Assembly: GCF_023208195.1 (NCBI RefSeq)
Contig: NZ_CP060034.1
Location: 2,790,001 to 2,854,000 of the forward strand
DNA: 64,000 nucleotides
From: Nocardioides sp. InS609-2
GTDB taxonomy: Bacteria > Actinomycetota > Actinomycetes > Propionibacteriales > Nocardioidaceae
Direction: 5' to 3'
Positions 9,723 to 54,929 of the stretch are shown here, in pieces. Position 1 is the stretch's first letter; every line of letters starts with the position of its first letter. The translations under genes and the position numbers were made by a program. The notes under the pieces are model-generated. The model did not search any database, was not told the DNA's origin, and saw only the letters and a list, made by a program, of their open reading frames with translations.

Positions 9723-10560
9723 GGCCGTGCAGGAGGACTGGCAGCCGAAGCTCGTCGCCCTCGACATCGACGGCACGCTGCTCAAGTGGGTCGAGGGTGC
9801 CGGCCAGACCTACGAGCAGATCCCGCCTGCCGTGTACTCCGCGGTGCACCGCCTCCTGGATGCCGGCGCCCACGTCGTACTCAGCTCGGGGCGCTCGCCG
9901 CACGGGATGAGCCCGATCGCCGACCTGCTCAAGATCCCCCGCGACGGCGACGAGCGGCTCTGGATCGTGGCATCCAACGGTGCCGTGGTCTTCCGCTACC
10001 CCGAGCTGGAGGTCGTGCACGAGGAGACCTTCGACGCTAGACCGGCGGTCGAGGCCGTGCTGCGCGAGCACCCTGAGGCGCTGGTCGCCGTCGAGGAGCG
10101 CGGCGTCGGCTACCGCGTCAACCGGCCGTTCCCGATGGGCGAGCTGTCGGGCGAGATGATCGAGACCGCGGTCGCCGACATCATCGCCGGGCCGGTGAGC
10201 CGGGTGATCATCCGCGACCCGGCCGCCACCGCCGACGACTTCGTGGCGCTCGCCGCCCGGCTGGGCCTGCACGGCACCGACTACGTCGTCGGCTGGACCG
10301 CCTGGCTCGACCTGTCGCCGGTCGGGGTCTCGAAGGCATCCGGCCTGGCGCTCGTGGCCGAGCGGCTGGGCGTCGCGCAAGCAGACGTGCTCGCCATCGG
10401 CGACGGCCGCAACGACATCGAGATGCTGCGCTGGGCCGGCCGGGGTGTCGCCATGGGCCAGGCCGTCCAGGAGGTCCTCGACGCCGCCGACCACGTGACC
10501 GACTCCGTCGCCGACGACGGCGCGGCCGTCGAGATCAGCCGCTGGTTCCCCGACTCGTGA
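9715..10560 (+). CDS. HAD-superfamily (Cof-type) hydrolase
   Basis: 281 residues with a TTG start overlapping serS; a GTG at 9727 is an alternative start. The Cof-type HAD motifs are present: motif [14 protein letters not shown], motif [10 protein letters not shown] and motif [18 protein letters not shown], with a C2 cap between. Cof-type enzymes dephosphorylate sugar phosphates, nucleotides or cofactor intermediates in the cytosol. It is directly followed by a paralogue with a GTGA overlap. Confidence 0.9.
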
Positions 10561-45870: not shown

Positions 45871-45871
<1 letters not shown>

Positions 45872-48800
45872 TGCGCACGCCCGTGAGCACCTACCGGCTC
45901 CAGGTCACCGAGGAGTTCGACCTCTTCGCGGTGGCGCGGCTGTTGCCGTACCTCCACGACCTCGGCGCCGACTGGGTCTACCTCTCGCCGCTGCTCGCGG
46001 CAGAGGTCGGCTCCGACCACGGCTACGACGTGGCCGACCACCACCACATCGACCCGGCTCGTGGTGGTGCTCCGGGGCTGGCCGCGGTGTCGGCCGAGGC
46101 GCACCGGCTGGGCATGGGCGTGCTCGTCGACATCGTGCCCAACCACGTCGGCGTGGCCGAGCCCGCCGGCAACATGTGGTGGTGGCACGTGCTCACGCAC
46201 GGCCAGGAGTCGCCGTACGCCGGGGCTTTCGACATCGACTGGGCCGCCGGTGGCGGTCGGCTGCGCATCCCGGTCGTCGGCGACGACGACCTGCTCGACG
46301 GCGGCGGCATCGGCAACCTGCGGGTCGAGGCGGGCCAGCTGCACTACCACGATCACGCCTACCCGCTGGCTCCCGGCAGTGCCGACGACTGGGCCACCGA
46401 CGGCGCCGACGCCGACGCCGTGCACGCGCGCCAGCACTACGAGCTGGTCTCGTGGCGACTGGCCGACGCGGGGCTCAACTACCGCCGCTTCTTCGCGGTC
46501 AACACGCTGGCAGCGATCCGCGTTGAGGACCCCGAGTGGTTCCGCCGGTCGCACCAGCTGATCGGCGAGTGGTTCGCGGAGGGTCAGGTCGACGGCCTGC
46601 GGGTCGACCACCCCGACGGCCTGCGCGAACCGGTCGGCTACCTCGACGACCTCGCCGAGCTGACCGGCCACGCCTACGTGCTCGTCGAGAAGATCCTCGA
46701 GCCCGGCGAGGAGCTGCCGACCGACTGGGCCACCGCCGGCACGACCGGGTACGACGTACTCGGTCTGCTCGACCGCGTGCTCACCGACCCGGCCGGGGCC
46801 TCGCCGCTGGGTGAGCTCGACGAGCGGCTCCGTGGCGGGCCGGTCGACTGGCACAAGATGGTGCACGACAACAAGCGCACCGTCGCCGACACCATCTTGC
46901 GCTCGGAGGTGCTGCGCATCGGTCGCGAGCTGCGCGTCGAGATCGCCGACGCCCCGGCCGACACCGAGGACGCCGTCGCCGAGCTGATCGCGTGCTTCCC
47001 GGTCTACCGCTCCTACCTGCCGGGCGGGCGGGACCACCTCGACCAGGCGTTCGCACTGGCTCGTGAGCACCGGCCCGGCCTGGTGCCGACCTTCGACGTG
47101 CTCCTGCCGGTGCTGTCCGACCCCGAGCGGCCGCCGACCCTGCGCTTCCAGCAGACCAGCGGCATGGTGATGGCCAAGGGTGTCGAGGACTGCTCGTTCT
47201 ACCGTTGGTCGCGGCTCACCTCGCTCAACGAGGTCGGCGCCGACCCGTCGATCTTCTCGATCACCCCGGCCGACTTCCACGCCGCGATGGCCGACCGGCA
47301 GCACCACTGGCCGACCGCGATGACCGCGCTGTCGACCCACGACACCAAGCGCGGCGAGGACGTCCGCGCCCGCATCACTGCCCTCGCCGAGGCTCCTGCG
47401 CTGTGGGAGTCGGCTCTCGACCGGCTGCTGGCGCTGGCGCCGCTGCCCGACGCCGGCTTCGGCAACCTGCTGTGGCAGGCGATCCTGGGTGCCTGGTCCG
47501 CCGATGCCCGTCTCCGCGACCGCCTGCACGGGTACGCCGAGAAGGCGATGCGCGAGGCTGGTGACCGCACCACGTGGACCGCGCCCGACGAGGCCTACGA
47601 GGTCGCCGTACACGCGGCTGTGGATGCTGCCTTCGACGACGAGCGCGTCACCGCGGTGCTCGCCGAGGTGCTGGCTGCCGTCGCCGACGCCGGCTGGAGC
47701 AACGCCCTGGCGGCCAAGCTGCTGGCGCTGACGATGCCGGGCGTGCCCGACGTCTACCAGGGCAGCGAGCTGTGGGAGCAGAGCCTGGTCGACCCCGACA
47801 ACCGTCGGCCGGTCGACTTCGAGTCGCGGGCGTCGCTGCTCGAATCCGTGGCCTTTGGAGCGCGACCGGCTCTGGTCGGTGGCCTGGACGACGCGGGCGC
47901 GGCCAAGCTGCTGCTCACCCGCGCAGGGCTGATCGCCCGTCGTGACCGGGCCGAGCTCTTCACCGGTTACACGCCCGTCGAGGTCACCGGCGGGGCCGCC
48001 GACCACGCACTGGCATTCGACCGCGGCGGCTCGATCACCGTGGTCACCCGGCTCCCGCTGGGCCTCGCGGCCCGCGGCGGGTGGGGCGACACCGCCATCT
48101 CCCTGCCCTCGGGCGAGTGGGTCGAACAGCTCTCCGGCAGCACGCTCACGGGCACGGTCGCTCTCGCCGACGTGCTGGCCGAGCACCCCGTCGCGCTTCT
48201 GCTCCGCGCCCAGCCGACGGCCGGCGAGGCACCCCGCAGCCGCTTCGACATCTGGGCGCCGCGACCCGAGCGGGTCGAGCTCCAGGTCGACGACCGACGT
48301 GTGCCGATGACGCGTGGCAACGACGGCTGGTGGACTCCCGCTGAGCCGACGCCGGACGACGAGGTCGACTACGGCTACGTCGTCGATGACCGTGACATCG
48401 CGCTGCCCGCCCCCCGGTCGCGGCGCCAGCCCGGCGGCGTACACGCGCTGTCGCGGACGTTCGATGCCTCGGCCCATGAGTGGCAGGACGGCGCGTGGAC
48501 CGGGCGTCAGCTGGCCGGCGCGATGATCTACGAGCTGCACATCGGCACGTTCACGCCCGAGGGCACGCTCGACGCGGCGCTCGGCCGGCTCGACCACCTG
48601 CGCTCGCTGGGCGTGGACTTCGTCGAGCTGCTGCCGGTCAACGCGGTCAACGGCACACACAACTGGGGCTACGACGGCGTCCTCTGGTCGGCTGTCCACG
48701 AGCAGTACGGCGGCCCCGCGGCGTACCAGCGCTTCGTCGACGGCTGCCACGCGGCGGGCATCGGCGTGATCCAGGACGTCGTGCACAACCACCTGGGTCC

Positions 48801-49977
48801 GTCGGGCAACTATCTGCCGGCCTTCGGGCCGTATCTCAAGGACGGCGCCAACACGTGGGGTGACCTGGTCAACCTGGACGGCGACGGCAGCGCCGAGGTG
48901 CGCCGGCTGATCCTCGACAGCGTGCACGTGTGGCTGGGCGACTACCACGTCGACGGGCTGCGGCTCGATGCCGTGCACGCGCTCTCCGACGACTCCGAGG
49001 TCCACCTGCTGGAGGAGATGGCAGTCGAGGTGGCGGCCCTCTCGGCCCACGTCGGCCGCCCGCTGACGCTGATCGCGGAGTCCGACCTCAACGACACCCG
49101 GCTGGTGATGCCGCGCGAGGGTGGCGGCTACGGACTCGACGCCCAGTGGAGCGACGACTTCCACCATGCCGTGCACGTCGCGCTGACCGGCGAGACCGAC
49201 GGCTACTACGCCGACTTCGAGCCGTTGACCGCGCTGGGCAAGGTGCTGACGGCCGGCTTCTTTCACGACGGCACCTTCAGCTCGTTCCGCAATCGTCAGC
49301 ACGGCAAGCCGGTCGATGTCGAGCGGATGCCCGGCTGGCGGCTGGTGGTCGCCAACCAGAACCACGACCAGATCGGCAACCGCGCCCGCGGCGACCGGCT
49401 GGCCGAGGCGCTTGACGACGACCAGCTGGTCTGCGCGGCGCTGCTGACCCTGACTTCGCCCTTCACTCCGATGCTCTTCCAGGGCGAGGAGTGGGCGGCC
49501 ACGTCTCCGTTCCAGTTCTTCACCTCGCACCCCGAGCCCGAGCTCGGTCGCGCAACGGCCGAGGGCCGGCTGGCGGAGTTCGAGCGGATGGGCTGGGACC
49601 CGGCCGTCGTACCCGACCCGCAGGACCCCGCGACCTTCGAGCGATCCAAGCTCGACTGGTCGGAGCTCGACGGTGGCCGGCATGCGGTGGTCCTCGACGC
49701 CTACCGCCGGCTGGGTGCGCTGCGGCGAGAGCTGCCCGAGCTCACCTACCCGCGTCTGAGCTCCGTCGAGGTTGATGTCGACGAGGTACGACGCGTGCTG
49801 GTGATGCGCCGCGGTGCTGCCGTCGTCGCGGTGAACTTCTCCGACACCGAGGTGAGCGTCGGGCTTCCGTCGCGGAGCGAGGTGGTCTTCGCGACGCCTG
49901 CTGGGGCGAGCGTCGACGGCGTCTCGGTGGTGCTGCCGGCGCATGCCGGTGCGCTGCTGCGGCCGCTGATGGGTTAG
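45871..49977 (+). CDS. treYZ: TreY-TreZ fusion: maltooligosyl trehalose synthase and trehalohydrolase
   Basis: One uninterrupted frame of 1368 residues. Residues 1 to about 785 are TreY (GH13_26), which isomerises the reducing end of maltodextrin to maltooligosyl trehalose: [45 protein letters not shown] (nucleophile near 244) and [14 protein letters not shown]. Residues about 789-1368 are TreZ (GH13_10), which releases trehalose: a CBM48-like start [26 protein letters not shown] near 929, [22 protein letters not shown] (nucleophile near 1027) and LIAESDLND. The two are normally separate genes. Translation is coupled to glgX. No frameshift or internal stop is visible at the joint. Confidence 0.95.
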
Positions 49978-49984
49978 CTGACGG

Positions 49985-50046
49985 GGTAGTCCGGGCCGTT
50001 TCGCACCTGGATCGGCCGGGCGAGGTGCATTTTGCCCCGGACTACC
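49985..50046. terminator. Nested hairpin between convergent treYZ and cobB
   Basis: An 11-bp perfect outer stem GGTAGTCCGGG (49985-49995) and its complement at 50036-50046 encloses an inner stem GCACCT (50003-50008) / AGGTGC (50023-50028). The right outer arm covers the cobB stop codon. Probably a bidirectional terminator. Confidence 0.6.
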
Positions 50047-50737
50047 TCCGGGTCGACAGCAGGTCGTCGACCCAGGCCGGCACCAGCTCGGTGGCCGGGC
50101 CGGTGCGTGACTGCCGGAAGTCGTCGGCTCCGTCACTGGGCTCGAGGTTGAGCTCGAGGGTGTCAGCTCCCGCGGCCACGGCGTACTTCACGAAGGCGGC
50201 GGCGGGGTAGACCACGCCCGACGTGCCGATCGAGACGAACAGGTCGGCGTCCCACAGGGCTTCGTGGATCTCGTCCATGCCGTAGGGGATCTCGCCGAAC
50301 CACACGACGTCGGGCCGCAGGGTCTGCCGCCCGCAGCCCGGGCAGGCCGGCTCGTCGCGCAGGTCGATCGTCCACTCGTGGCGGGCATCGCAAACGACGC
50401 ACCAGGCCGCTGTGAGGCGGCCGTGCATGTGGTGCACGCGCTGCGAGCCGGCGCGCTCGTGCAGGTCGTCGATGTTCTGGGTGACGAGGAAGAGGTCGTC
50501 GCCCAGCTCCTGCTCGAGTCTGGCCAGCGCCTCGTGGGCTGCGTTCGGCCGGACCCGACCCAGCACTGCCCGGCGTTCGTCGTAGAACCGCTGCACCAGG
50601 ACCGGATCGGCCGCGAACGCCTCGGGCGTCGCGACCTGCATCGGGTCGTGGCCCTCCCAGAGCCCGTCGGCGTCGCGGAACGTGGCCAGCCCGCTCTCGG
50701 CGGAGATGCCGGCTCCGGTCAGGACGACGACGCGCAT
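50042..50737 (-). CDS. cobB: NAD-dependent protein deacylase (sirtuin, class III)
   Basis: 231 residues. Sirtuin motifs: TGAGISAESGLATFRDADGL, TQNIDDLHERAGS with the catalytic His in HHMHG, a zinc ribbon of two cysteine pairs (CVVC and CPGC) and GTSGVVYPAAAF. Y52 and R55 in FYDERR are the class III pair that favours succinyl/malonyl removal (SIRT5-like). Its ATG lies 4 bases after a TGA that would end a menB-like reading frame (PWYY-stop), so it was probably the second gene of a menB-cobB operon before the insertion. Confidence 0.94.
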   Translation of the reverse strand: MRVVVLTGAGISAESGLATFRDADGLWEGHDPMQVATPEAFAADPVLVQRFYDERRAVLGRVRPNAAHEALARLEQELGDDLFLVTQNIDDLHERAGSQRVHHMHGRLTAAWCVVCDARHEWTIDLRDEPACPGCGRQTLRPDVVWFGEIPYGMDEIHEALWDADLFVSIGTSGVVYPAAAFVKYAVAAGADTLELNLEPSDGADDFRQSRTGPATELVPAWVDDLLSTRR

Positions 50738-50743
50738 CAGCTC

Positions 50744-50757
50744 AGTAGTACCAGGGG
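50744..50757. repeat. Distal copy of the 14-bp menB-end direct repeat (putative att)
   Basis: AGTAGTACCAGGGG, identical to 53960-53973 at the true menB 3' end. On the minus strand it encodes the end PWYY followed by TGA, 4 bases before the cobB start. Confidence 0.5.
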
Positions 50758-50911
50758 AAGCGCGGCACGCTCAGCGACTGTTGACGGCCATCGTCGGCAT
50801 TGTGGGGCTGACCTGCGGAAACTCGTTGACGACCGTTGGCCGCGGACGGTCGCCGTTGGTCCTCCTGCCACGCATTTGCCACGCACGAGCGCGTCATCAG
50901 CCGCCTCCGGA

Positions 50912-51234
50912 TCGCCCTGGTCTTCGCTGAGCGTGGCCTCCCAGTCCTGGCCACCGTGAAAGACGCCGAGGATGTCGACGACGATCTCATCGGACGACTC
51001 GTCGAGCGCCTAGGCGACGAGGGTCCTCTTCTTGAAGGTGGTCGTCCGCATGCCCGGTCGGACGTCGTCGCGCGCTTGGCCGGCTAGCGGGAACACCAAG
51101 ATGGCGTCGATGTGGTCGAGGATCGCCGACACGAACTGCTGGGCGATCTCGGCCGACGCCGCCTGGGTGATCCAGTTGTCGAGATCCTGGAGTTGCTGCT
51201 CGGCTTCGGGGGAGTAGTTGATCCGGCCCGTCAT
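50912..51234 (-). pseudogene. RelE/ParE-type toxin with in-frame amber codon
   Basis: The ATG at 51234 overlaps the antitoxin stop (ATGA). ParE fold: INYSPEAEQQLQDLDNWITQ and GMRTTTFKKRTLVA, then TAG at 51012-51010 after 74 codons. The same frame continues past the TAG as DESSDEIVVDILGVFHGGQD and WEATLSED, the normal end of the family, where the replaced residue is usually Tyr. A Tyr-to-amber change therefore removes the C-terminal strand that carries catalytic residues in this fold. The 3' limit given is where family similarity ends. Confidence 0.75.
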
Positions 51235-51476
51235 GAACGGGCGGCCCACTTGGCTTCGAAGCGAAACCTGACTTCTTCGGCGGGGATCGCGCGTGACGGG
51301 TCGGCCTTCAGGGCGTCATACGCCGTCGCGGCCTCGGTGTGCAGCCGCTCCTCTGCCGCGGCGTCGAAGGCCTCGTCCGACTCGACCGATTCGAGGAGCC
51401 GCAGTGCTACGTCCTTGCGCACCGAAGGAGGCAGGGACATGCCCGCCTCGTAGAACTCCGATGCACTGAACGTCAC
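51231..51476 (-). CDS. Addiction module antitoxin (TIGR02574-like)
   Basis: 81 residues from a GTG. SLPPSVRKDVALRLLESVES and DPSRAIPAEEVRFRFEAKW match the short helical TIGR02574 antitoxin family that pairs with RelE/ParE toxins. It is followed by the toxin with a 4-base overlap. It is intact although its toxin carries a nonsense codon, a common decay order since antitoxin loss would be lethal first. Confidence 0.82.
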   Translation of the reverse strand: MTFSASEFYEAGMSLPPSVRKDVALRLLESVESDEAFDAAAEERLHTEAATAYDALKADPSRAIPAEEVRFRFEAKWAARS

Positions 51477-51617
51477 GCCATGAGTCTACGTCTGGCAGAC
51501 GACAGCCGGCAGCCTCGAGCATTCTGACTGCGGCTGCTTGTTTCATTGACCCAGGACCGGCGTACGGGCGGCCGGTGCCGGACGCCCGTACGCGGAAGAG
51601 ATGACGTGAGAGGCGGG

Positions 51618-52289
51618 TCAGGGCTGGAGCCGCGAGGCGGTCCATCCTTGGTCGTCGAGCGTGTAGCTGAGACGACGGTGCAGACGGCTGCTCCTGCCCT
51701 GCCAGAACTCGATCCGCTCGATGCGCAACCGATAGCCGCCCCACCCGTCGGGGCGGGGGACGGGTCCGTCGGTCTGAGCCAGTGCCTCAGCTCGTCGGTG
51801 GAGTTCCTGCTCGTCTGCGAGCGGGGCGCCTTGGTTGGAGGCTGCAGTGGTGGCTTGGGCCGCTAGCGGACGGGCGGAGAACAACTGGTCTGCCTCGGCG
51901 TCGTCGAGTCGGGTGACGGAGCCGACGACATTGATCTGTTGCAGTGTTTCGCGCCAGTAGAAGTTGATGGCCGCGTACGGATTGCTCCGTAGGTCGTGGC
52001 CCTTGCGGCTCCCGTGGTGCGTGGTGAAGACGAGTCCGCCGGTTTCCTCCACGCCCTTGAGCAGCACGACACGGGTCGAGGGAACTCCGGAGCAGTCTGA
52101 CGTGGCGAGCGTCACAGCAAGAGGTTCGCGGACCACCCCTTCGGCCGCCGCGATCCAAGTGCCGAGCAGTGCCACCGGGTCGTCCGGAGGTGAGTCGAAC
52201 TCAGGCAGTTGGAGCGATTCGTCACCGCTCAGGGTGTTCGCTGGTGAGGGTGTTTCTGGCTTCAGACCTGTGCTTTGTGCAGGCCGCAT
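51618..52289 (-). CDS. PhzG-like pyridoxamine 5'-phosphate oxidase family enzyme
   Basis: 223 residues from ATG at 52289, with AGGAGG 4 bases upstream. FMN split-barrel flavoenzyme of the PNPOx/PhzG type: PLAVTLATSDCSGVPSTRVV, GLVFTTHHGSRKGHDLRSNP (FMN-binding), INFYWRETLQQINVVGSVTR and the C-terminal PNPOx dimerisation region GGYRLRIERIEFWQGRSSRL. Its position in the decayed element, beside aminotransferase and FAD-protein relics, suggests secondary metabolism (PhzG-like oxidation) rather than vitamin B6 synthesis. It is the only fully intact enzyme gene in the element. Confidence 0.85.
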   Translation of the reverse strand: MRPAQSTGLKPETPSPANTLSGDESLQLPEFDSPPDDPVALLGTWIAAAEGVVREPLAVTLATSDCSGVPSTRVVLLKGVEETGGLVFTTHHGSRKGHDLRSNPYAAINFYWRETLQQINVVGSVTRLDDAEADQLFSARPLAAQATTAASNQGAPLADEQELHRRAEALAQTDGPVPRPDGWGGYRLRIERIEFWQGRSSRLHRRLSYTLDDQGWTASRLQP

Positions 52290-52304
52290 TTCGCCTCCTA
52301 CGAG

Positions 52305-52330
52305 GCTGTTCCGACCGAGTTCGGAACAGC
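52305..52330. promoter_or_regulatory. 10-bp dyad upstream of the PhzG-like gene
   Basis: GCTGTTCCGA (52305-52314) and TCGGAACAGC (52321-52330) with a 6-base centre, ending 16 bases before the PhzG-like start and just outside its Shine-Dalgarno. Probably an operator, or a leader hairpin, in the space shared with the divergent aminotransferase remnant. Confidence 0.5.
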
Positions 52331-52379
52331 AAGGGGGGAGACGTTAGCAGGTCCCGAAGACGTTTCAACCCGACCTCAG

Positions 52380-52807
52380 GGCCTCGAAATCAAGTTGATC
52401 GAGAACGACTCGCCTCTCTTCACACCCGCAGTCCAAGTGCTCTACGCCTTCGACCAGGCCCTGGACCTCGCCCTCGAGGAGGGCGTCGACGGACGCATTG
52501 CCCGATGCCAGTCCTTGGCCGCTGGGCTTCGCGAGGGGATTCGCGCGCTGGACCTGGAGTTCCTGCTCCCTGAGGAGCACTGGAGCAACAGCGTCAAGAA
52601 CGTCCACGTGCCGGAAGGGGTCTCGTACGCCGACCCGCATGACGAGCTCCGCGAACGCGGCTTCACGATCTACGGCGTCCAGGCCCAGCTAGGGGAGGTC
52701 TTCAGGATCGCAACATGGGTCAGGTCAACGCACAGTCGATCGAGGACTTCCTGGTGGCTCTGGGCGACGTCCTGGGCAGTCTGGCCAGTGGGGAGGCCGT
52801 CGCATGA
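52380..52807 (+). pseudogene. C-terminal fragment of a class V aminotransferase
   Basis: Starts abruptly as GLEIKLIENDSPLFTPAVQV and continues FDQALDLALEEGVDGRIARC, LLPEEHWSNSVKNVHVPEGV and FTIYGVQAQLGEVFRIAT. This is the C-terminal domain of alanine-glyoxylate or 2-aminoethylphosphonate-pyruvate type (class V, PLP) transaminases. A one-base loss near 52714 shifts the frame; it resumes as MGQVNAQSIEDFLVALGDVL and stops at 52807. The N-terminal PLP-lysine part is missing, so it is inactive. Its stop overlaps the next start (ATGA), a relic of an operon. Confidence 0.7.
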
Positions 52808-52899
52808 GCGCCCGCAGACTCGCCGTCGTCGGCGGCGGTCCCAGTTGCACCTACGTCACGGAACGACTCGCTGCCACGTTGCCGCAGATCACCGAGCAG
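52804..52899 (+). pseudogene. N-terminal fragment of an FAD/NAD(P)-binding protein
   Basis: ATG at 52804 overlaps the aminotransferase stop. The encoded RRLAVVGGGPSCTYVTERLA is the Rossmann start of actinobacterial FAD/NAD(P)-binding proteins with the GGGPSCTYV signature. Homology ends after about 28 codons, where the sequence turns into the antisense of a sirtuin. A breakpoint therefore lies near 52890-52900. Confidence 0.6.
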
Positions 52900-53287
52900 C
52901 TCGAGCTCGAGCGTATGGGCGCCCTGCTCGGCGGCCCAGTGCGCGAACGCCGCTGCCGGGTAGACCACAGAAGAGGTACCGATGGTGACGAAGAGATCGG
53001 CCTCCTGCAGCGCTTGGAGCACCCTCGTCCATGCGGTAGGGGATCTCCCCGAACCAGACGATGTCGGGGCGCAGCATCGCCGCGGCGCAGCCCGGGCACG
53101 CGGGGCAGTGTGAGAGGTTGCCGGCCCAGGTGAAGCGGTAGCCGCAGGCCAGGCACAGTGCCGACCTCAACTCGCCGTGCATGTGCAGGACGTTCTTCGA
53201 GCCGCCGCGTTCGTGCAGGTCGTCAACGTTCTGGGTGATCATCAGGAGGTCGTCGCCGAGCGACTCCTCGAGGCGGCCGAGCGCCAT
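52900..53287 (-). pseudogene. Sirtuin (cobB-like) internal fragment, frameshifted
   Basis: Reads GRLEESLGDDLLMITQNVDD, HMHGELRSALCLACGYRFTW, CPACPGC and RPDIVWFGEIPYRMDE. A one-base gain near 53025 then shifts the frame to LQALQEADLFVTIGTSSVVY and AAEQGAHTLELE. It parallels residues about 70-195 of the intact CobB 2.5 kb away but is clearly diverged, so it is not a fresh duplicate. The NAD-binding N-terminus and C-terminus are absent. Confidence 0.75.
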
Positions 53288-53408
53288 CGAGGAAGCCGCA
53301 GCTTTCCTGAAAGTGCCCGTCGCGACGATGCGCTACTGGCGCGCTGACCTCGTGCTCTGGCGCGCCGAGCAGGGCCGCCGACCCGAGGAGGCTTCTCCAC
53401 AGGCGTGA
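53283..53408 (+). pseudogene. Excisionase/HTH fragment
   Basis: 41 codons: EEAAAFLKVPVATMRYWRA, then DLVLWRAEQGRRPEEASPQ and TGA. The first part is the MerR-like helix-turn-helix of actinobacterial Xis proteins. The GP-xx-RxGRRVVY wing normally between YWRA and DLxxW is missing, indicating an internal deletion, and the N-terminus is lost at the sirtuin junction. It lies 63 bases upstream of the integrase, the usual xis-int order. Confidence 0.6.
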
Positions 53409-53471
53409 CCTTCGAGCAGCCCTGTTGTCGGTCCCGCGAGTCACGATGAGTCATCGAGGAGAGGAACAACG

Positions 53472-53955
53472 ATGGCCGGGAGCATTGCCAAACGTCAGGA
53501 CGGCAGATGGCTCGCCCGCTGCCGCGACAAGGCCGGCAACGAACGGGCTCGACACTTCGAGCGGAGGTCGACGCTTAACGCTGGCTCGACGAGATCGCGT
53601 CGTCCGTCGTGAGCGGCACGTACGTCGACCCAAAGGCCGGCGTCACCTTCAAGCAGTTTTACGAGGACTGGTCGCAGCGGCAACCGTGGGTGCCCTCCAC
53701 TCAGGCGAACGCGGAACTCGCGACCAGGTCCACAACCTTCGCCGCCTTGCCCATGAAGGCGATCCGCCGCTCCCACGTCGAAGCATGTGAAGGTGATGTC
53801 GACCCGATGGGCGCCGAGCACGATCAAGACCAGGTTCGTGATCGTGCGATCGGTGTTCCGAGCAGCTGTCGCCGACCGGGTCATCGCCTTCGACCCGAGC
53901 GCCGGCGTCGCCCTGCCGTGTCGTCGCCAAGCCGTGGCAGCCATGCGGACCCCTC
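53472..53955 (+). pseudogene. Integrase (tyrosine recombinase) remnant, frameshifted and truncated
   Basis: ATG at 53472 after GAGGAGAGG. AGSIAKRQDGRWLARCRDKA is the AP2-like arm-binding start of actinobacterial phage/ICE integrases. The frame breaks near 53578 and continues in others as WLDEIASSVVSGTYVDPKAG, TFKQFYEDWSQRQPWVPSTQ, PMKAIRRSHVEA and STIKTRFVIVRSVFRAAVAD to CRRQAVAAM. The catalytic domain is absent; the sequence runs straight into the menB stop region. Confidence 0.8.
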
Positions 53956-53957
53956 AG

Positions 53958-54875
<918 letters not shown>

Positions 54876-54929
54876 GGCGCCATCGTAGGGACGCTGGAAT
54901 CCCGGCCGGCGACGTGGTGTTGTGAAGGC

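What the first reader, a model, noticed from the sequence alone, without database searches (positions are those of the whole stretch)
50744..53973. Decayed integrative element split an ancestral menB-cobB operon
The sequence AGTAGTACCAGGGG at the menB 3' end is repeated exactly next to cobB. Cutting out everything between the copies gives the menB terminus PWYY, TGA, 4 bases, then the cobB ATG. That is a tight operon joining menaquinone synthesis and a class III sirtuin. The intervening 3.2 kb holds xis and int relics in the usual order beside menB. Protein-coding 3' ends are known integration targets, but I know of no description of menB as such a site.
Basis: partly seen in the sequence, partly recalled or inferred. 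Interest (0 to 1): 0.72.

Follow-up and report, generated by a model that had tools for sequence, protein, structure and literature searches.

The report
Decayed mobile element at menB end
A worn-out mobile DNA element sits exactly at the end of a vitamin K2 biosynthesis gene in an actinobacterium, and less decayed relatives of it use the same landing spot in related bacteria, a landing spot that I did not find described.

Summary
The 14-bp repeat is exact, and the joined flanks read menB ...PWYY-TGA-4 bp-ATG cobB. Five of 140 menB loci from the same genus (Nocardioides) have that tight order without an insert. The 3.2 kb between the repeats is the remnant of a tyrosine-integrase element: its int and xis relics match elements at the menB 3' end elsewhere, and its right arm matches four of them at 46-49 of 60 bases (random maximum 31). 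Nocardioides sp. CAN_BIN07 (L297) has a 7.9-kb version with the same toxin-antitoxin pair (91%/84%), the same att ends, cobB and treYZ neighbour. Wider picture: 32 of 140 menB loci carry the family's left-end signature. Of 62 related integrases treed, all 19 with menB in the fetched flank fall in one 21-row clade. Five better-preserved elements examined carry restriction or DNA-methylase genes. The window's insert also holds a foreign cobB relic and a PhzG-like gene. It is a dead member of a known kind of element, at an attachment site I found no description of.

The parts
53958..54878 (-). menB, 1,4-dihydroxy-2-naphthoyl-CoA synthase; its 3' end is the attachment site
   Evidence: PF00378; NCBIfam NF006186 571 bits, TIGR01929 412 bits
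53960..53973 (.). menB-side core copy (attL); the stop here is now TAA
53472..53954 (+). tyrosine integrase relic, N-terminal and central parts only, frameshifted, cut off at about codon 163-169 beside the core; catalytic domain missing
   Evidence: tblastn with L118 int: 50% over residues 23-107 and 70% over 109-164, E 2e-35; E 1e-31 to 4e-34 with L054, L090, L110 ints
53262..53408 (+). excisionase (HTH_17-type) relic, middle part lost
   Evidence: 35-36% to Xis of L054, L110 and L118 elements, E 1e-9 to 7e-9; 29% to that of L088, E 4e-8; weak HTH_17 hit
52828..53296 (-). second, foreign cobB (sirtuin) relic, about residues 66-217, frameshifted
   Evidence: SIR2 E 5e-19; best stretch 78% to cobB of G023, 62-70% to the other best rows including G126 (70%), 60% to the window's own cobB; not placed in a tree
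52380..52721 (+). C-terminal fragment of a class V aminotransferase (PhnW-like)
   Evidence: TIGR03301 E 3e-17, far below its cut-off as a fragment; PDB class V aminotransferases, E 7e-7
51618..52289 (-). open PhzG/PdxH-type FMN oxidase gene, passenger
   Evidence: PF10590/PF01243; NF038138 PhzG 270.8 bits, cut-off 270; 56% to the gene after cobB in G126
51231..51476 (-). antitoxin of an addiction module
   Evidence: PF09720, 21.8 bits, just below its cut-off of 23.3; 84% to the copy in the L297 element
51010..51249 (-). ParE-type toxin of the addiction module
   Evidence: PF05016 34.1 bits; 91% to the copy in the L297 element
50758..50817 (.). element right arm (GCAGGTCAG ... CGCTGAGCGTGCCGCGCTT)
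   Evidence: searches (L133; L088; L297) of 60 bases identical without gaps, 47 with a gap (L082); maximum of 3000 random places 31
50744..50757 (.). cobB-side core copy (attR), followed by a TGA that I take for the old menB stop
50042..50737 (-). cobB, Sir2 family NAD-dependent deacylase, the gene that directly followed menB before insertion
   Evidence: PF02146 E 3e-45; NF001755 288 bits, below its cut-off of 318

Best explanation
The stretch 50744-53973 is a decayed integrative element. Its tyrosine integrase inserted it by recombination between a copy of the menB 3' end carried by the element (CCCCTGGTACTACTGA) and the same sequence in menB. The insertion left menB with its PWYY C-terminus and pushed cobB, which had followed menB after 4 bp, 3.2 kb away. 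The element then decayed: the catalytic half of int was deleted up to the core, xis was broken and most of the backbone was lost, leaving a toxin-antitoxin pair, a PhzG-like gene, an aminotransferase fragment and a foreign cobB relic. The element belongs to a family whose integrases form one clade tied to menB. Shown: core pair, right arm, int and xis homology, the syntenic longer copy in L297, insert-free relatives. Inferred: that recombination happened through this core, that the cobB relic and PhzG-like gene came together from a lineage with the G126-type order, and that cobB lost cotranscription with menB.
For: Exact core pair. Empty-site match to 5 of 140 extant loci. Right arm shared with L133, L082, L088 and L297. 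Int relic E 2e-35 and xis relic E about 1e-9 to menB-element proteins. L297: menB, int pieces, xis, further genes, antitoxin and ParE, core, cobB, treYZ-type gene; 78% identity over 1471 bp from the toxin-antitoxin pair through attR into cobB. 19 of 140 menB loci with int, xis or second-core evidence and 32 of 140 with the left-end signature. In the tree of 62 of 63 named integrases the 19 menB-adjacent ones fall in a 21-row clade (100/99).
Against: The window lacks the left-end signature (score -33.5), which I ascribe to the deletion into the core. No relaxase remnant was found in the insert (best hit E 0.005). Six of the nine second-core elements have a different right arm (13-18 of 60 bases), so the family has at least two arm types and the window matches only one. 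The genome has no related integrase at E<=1e-90, so movement cannot be shown. The nearest relative by cobB, G100, lacks the tight order.
Confidence: 0.93

Rival explanations
1. The second core is a leftover of a partial duplication of the menB-cobB region (there are two cobB copies), and the int and xis relics arrived independently.
For: A second cobB relic lies inside the repeats.
Against: The relic cobB is closer to G023 (78%) and to several other species than to the neighbouring cobB (60%), so it is not a recent local duplicate. The sequence beside the second core is an element right arm. L297 has the same ends around an int-xis element.
Confidence: 0.03
2. Composite or tandem origin: two or more menB-targeted elements inserted in series, and the foreign cobB-phzG block lay between two att sites; the window shows the collapsed array. 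(A refinement of the best explanation, not exclusive with it.)
For: A further left end follows the second core in L088, L090, L110 and L234, 4 of the 9 loci with a second core at 0-1 mismatch; cobB followed by a PhzG-like gene in G126.
Against: Only two cores remain in the window. In the 7 of 9 second-core loci where a cobB was found it lies outside the two cores.
Confidence: 0.45
3. menB and cobB were never a functional operon; tight spacing in a few genomes is chance in a labile neighbourhood.
For: Only 5 of 140 loci have gaps of 20 bases or less, median 4.3 kb among 86; G100 differs.
Against: cobB is downstream on the same strand in 86 of 86 loci where it was found at all, 54 of 140 having no hit in the fetched stretch. 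The five tight cases are scattered over the window's own cobB clade. L297, whose cobB is only 67% like the window's, would have a 34-bp gap after the stop without its element.
Confidence: 0.3

Closest known systems
Integrative and mobilizable elements with tyrosine integrases that use gene 3' ends as attB (recalled: tRNA, tmRNA, guaA, icd, prfC, dusA sites)
   Same: Tyrosine integrase with PF00589 domain, small HTH excisionase, direct-repeat core that rebuilds the gene end, TrwC relaxase in better-preserved relatives
   Different: The site is the 3' end of menB; the integrases form their own clade; the window copy is dead
[quoted passage not shown]
   Same: Actinobacterial hosts, tyrosine integrase, site-specific integration
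   Different: menB elements have a TrwC relaxase gene in 12 of the 19 loci with int, xis or core evidence; the AICE hallmarks RepSA and FtsK/SpoIIIE were not searched for
Defence genes carried by mobile elements
   Same: Five better-preserved relatives examined carry type I RM (G058, G109), an MmeI-type IIG enzyme (G016), a MamI-like type II system (G056) and a DNA methylase (G141)
   Different: The window copy keeps no RM gene that I saw, only a toxin-antitoxin pair with no PADLOC match

Membership tests
menB-3'-end tyrosine-integrase element family (described here) | Core identical to the menB 3' end at both ends | tested here: met
   14 bp exact; in relatives the shared core includes the TGA
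menB-3'-end tyrosine-integrase element family (described here) | Integrase of the menB clade next to menB, read towards menB | tested here: met
   Relic only: 50-70% identity to L118 int, catalytic part missing; the relic was not placed in the tree
menB-3'-end tyrosine-integrase element family (described here) | Conserved right arm (one of two types) | tested here: met
   Matches L133, L082, L088, L297; not L054, L057, L090, L110, L129, L234
menB-3'-end tyrosine-integrase element family (described here) | Left-end signature GTTTGCGCAGGTCAGAG after the menB stop | tested here: not met
   Score -33.5; int is cut off at the core, so this end appears to be gone
Integrative and mobilizable element | Relaxase (TrwC/MobF) | tested here: not met
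   None detectable in the window's insert; present in 13 of 140 menB loci. I call the window feature a remnant, not an IME
Integrative element | Excision or integration activity | not testable with these tools
   Needs an experiment; int lacks its catalytic domain

The most novel reading that the evidence does not exclude
The 3' end of menB is a dedicated landing pad, not described in the papers I could search, for a widespread clade of restriction-carrying mobilizable elements in several actinobacterial families. These elements stack in tandem there and can carry off the neighbouring sirtuin gene, so that cobB alleles and cobB's link to menaquinone synthesis are reshuffled between species.
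Probability: 0.35. Interest if true: 0.6.

Novelty: new member of a known kind. Interest (0 to 1): 0.45.

Why it matters
It gives an apparently unreported, very conserved attB (CCCTGGTACTACTGA in 129 of 140 menB 3' ends) with a matching integrase clade. That predicts where restriction-carrying islands may sit in Nocardioides and neighbours, and offers a candidate integration tool for these actinobacteria. It also shows how two adjacent genes can be separated without damaging the upstream one.

Tried and rejected
Local duplication of menB-cobB was rejected: the relic cobB is foreign and the flank of the second core is an element arm. A universal tight operon was rejected: 5 of 140 loci. The PhzG-like gene is not the genome's only PdxH-type gene: a 37% copy lies elsewhere. 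The left-end pattern had one N too many; its near-null result (1 of 245) is invalid and was replaced (32 of 245 genomes, 5 of 26 genera by the tool's tally). The pattern at 1 mismatch also hits ordinary menB ends (CCTTCCCC...), so only its 15 exact sites in 14 of 215 genomes are meaningful. The profile was trained on 16 of the 32 loci it then scores; the other 16 are new, though L228 and L232 are near-copies of a trained one; the random-place maximum of 32.5 probably hit a true site. Right ends further than about 18 kb from menB could not be seen in the fetched stretches. First integrase tree: 40 of 63; repeated with 62 of 63, L301 dropped as 73 aa. In the extra tree the label 'menB' rests on 1.5-kb flanks, so L136, L137, L138, L150 and L161 read 'other' although searches put menB about 1.6-5.1 kb away. 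L249 (Leekyejoonella) stays an exception: no menB in 20 kb, but a core-like TTCCCCTGGTATTTCTAG shortly past int, in the other orientation, near a contig end. Literature searches without a relevant hit; the 2020 TIGER paper is not held.
Full report
What was checked. The two 14-bp copies are exact and at the stated places. The menB copy is the coding end of menB; the other ends 6 bp upstream of the cobB start and lies in no menB gene.

Insert-free relatives. The window's genome is one contig of 4.52 Mb. Its genus is Nocardioides: contigs of same-genus genomes G141, G058 and G056 have the lengths of named Nocardioides records. At E<=1e-60 menB was found in 146 of 147 genus genomes, but in G057, G089, G094 and G106 only a distant relative. 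cobB was found in 137 of 147 at E<=1e-20. I fetched 140 menB loci from the 146 relatives; the six left out are G031 (no hit), those four, and G144 (no 3' end). cobB was found in the fetched stretch of 86 of 140, always downstream on the same strand; 54 had no hit, 9 of these with less than 15 kb past menB. Gaps of 20 bases or less from the last menB codon occur in 5 of 140 (G005, G072, G086, G076, G136; starts as aligned by tblastn). In the cobB tree of 85 rows all five lie in the window's own 31-row clade (99/92), but the window's sister row, G100, has 9.8 kb of other reading frames there. So the tight order is real and preceded the insertion, but it is not the rule.

The insert is an element. 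The int relic matches integrases of elements found at menB in other genomes (E 2e-35 to L118) and stops at about codon 163-169, beside the core. That deletion would also explain why menB now ends in TAA and why only 14 bp of the core remain; in relatives the shared core includes TGA. The xis relic matches their Xis. The 60 bp beside the cobB-side core match the right arms of L133, L088 and L297 at 46-49 of 60 without gaps and of L082 at 47 with a gap; 3000 random places reach at most 31. Six other second-core elements (L054, L057, L090, L110, L129, L234) have a different arm (13-18 of 60). Those six have int sequence closer to the L110 type, while L082, L088 and L297 are closer to the L118 type, so there are two subtypes and the window fits the second. 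In L133, L088 and L297 the motif GCAGGTCAG or a one-base variant occurs near both ends, as expected of arm-type integrase sites (inference).

The best single comparison is L297, Nocardioides sp. isolate CAN_BIN07. It has menB, core, left signature, a broken int, xis, further genes, an antitoxin and ParE 84% and 91% identical to the window's, the right arm, the core, and a cobB start 34 bp after the TGA. The stretch from the toxin-antitoxin pair through attR into cobB aligns at 78% over 1471 bp with the window, and the next gene at 78% over 1071 bp; in the window that gene is a TreY-TreZ fusion.

How common the site is. 19 of 140 menB loci show int, xis or a second core. 32 of 140 have the left-end signature, 16 of them outside the profile's training set. 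Nine of 140 have a second core at 0-1 mismatch to the 17-mer, and 4 of these 9 are followed by another left end, that is, tandem elements. Across the family the corrected pattern occurs in 32 of 245 genomes and 5 of 26 genera by the tool's tally; I did not check each of these sites for menB.

Integrase clade. A scan of one genome per species gave 63 related integrases; the scan works through two short peptide patterns, so it is not complete. 19 have menB in the fetched flank. In a tree of 62 of them all 19 fall in a 21-row clade (100/99) with two others: L254, whose contig carries the core and signature at its end, and L249, unresolved. Hosts of the 19 include Nocardioides, Marmoricola, Aeromicrobium, Intrasporangium and Nostocoides. 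Of 8 genus integrases at 59-61% identity that are not next to menB on their contig, 7 were treed and form a separate 7-row clade (100/100); one (L146) lies close to what looks like a tRNA 3' end (read by eye).

Cargo. A TrwC-type relaxase is found in 13 of 140 menB loci (family call on the L118 protein). In the five elements whose larger cargo proteins I scanned, out of the nine with a second core, there are type I RM genes (G058, G109), an MmeI-type enzyme (G016), a MamI-like system (G056) or a DNA methylase (G141). G109 has only an int fragment. Several scanned proteins had no match.

Passenger genes in the window. Between xis and the toxin-antitoxin pair lie a frameshifted cobB relic, best match G023 (78%), then 62-70% to several others including G126, and 60% to the adjacent cobB; an aminotransferase fragment; and an open PhzG-like gene. 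Only 3 of 147 genus genomes have that gene at E<=1e-45: the window's, G126 (56%) and G079 (47%); in G126 it follows cobB directly on the same strand. G023 and G126 are sisters in the cobB tree (100/99). The simplest reading is that a cobB-phzG block from such a lineage travelled with the element; this is inference.

Literature. Searches gave no paper naming menB as an integration site in what I saw: listings, and passages of PMC11706625, PMC3339403, PMC12884075, PMC8190616, PMC2909200 and PMC12424338. The other listed papers (for instance 20 of 27 listed) were not opened. A figure legend in PMC3339403 lists a naphthoate synthase gene near type I restriction genes in Histophilus somni (passage only), without an attachment site. 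PMC12884075 (passage) says that many attB sites lie in protein-coding genes. Island databases may list menB without comment; I could not search them.

Verdict. The window feature is a dead remnant; the interest lies in the recurrent menB site and its integrase clade.

Noticed in passing
52828-53296: Foreign cobB relic inside the element, best match the cobB of G023.
   Followed up: partly
51618-52289: Open PdxH-type gene that just passes NCBIfam's PhzG (phenazine oxidase) cut-off (270.8 against 270); a second PdxH-type gene lies elsewhere in the genome.
   Followed up: partly
45871-49977: One open frame of 1368 aa that matches TreY (residues 4-778) and TreZ (791-1330), a TreY-TreZ fusion downstream of cobB.
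   Followed up: no
L088, L090, L110, L234: Second core followed by a further left-end signature: tandem menB elements.
   Followed up: partly
L249, shortly past position 10162: Leekyejoonella: core-like TTCCCCTGGTATTTCTAG after int in the opposite orientation, near a contig end.
   Followed up: no
L146: A related integrase outside the menB clade lies near what looks like a tRNA 3' end.
   Followed up: no
L107, after the menB stop: Short tandem copies of CTACTACTGAGCCG right after menB in G023.
   Followed up: no
G057, G089, G094, G106: No close menB found; the best hits listed for the first three are 46-47% identical.
   Followed up: no
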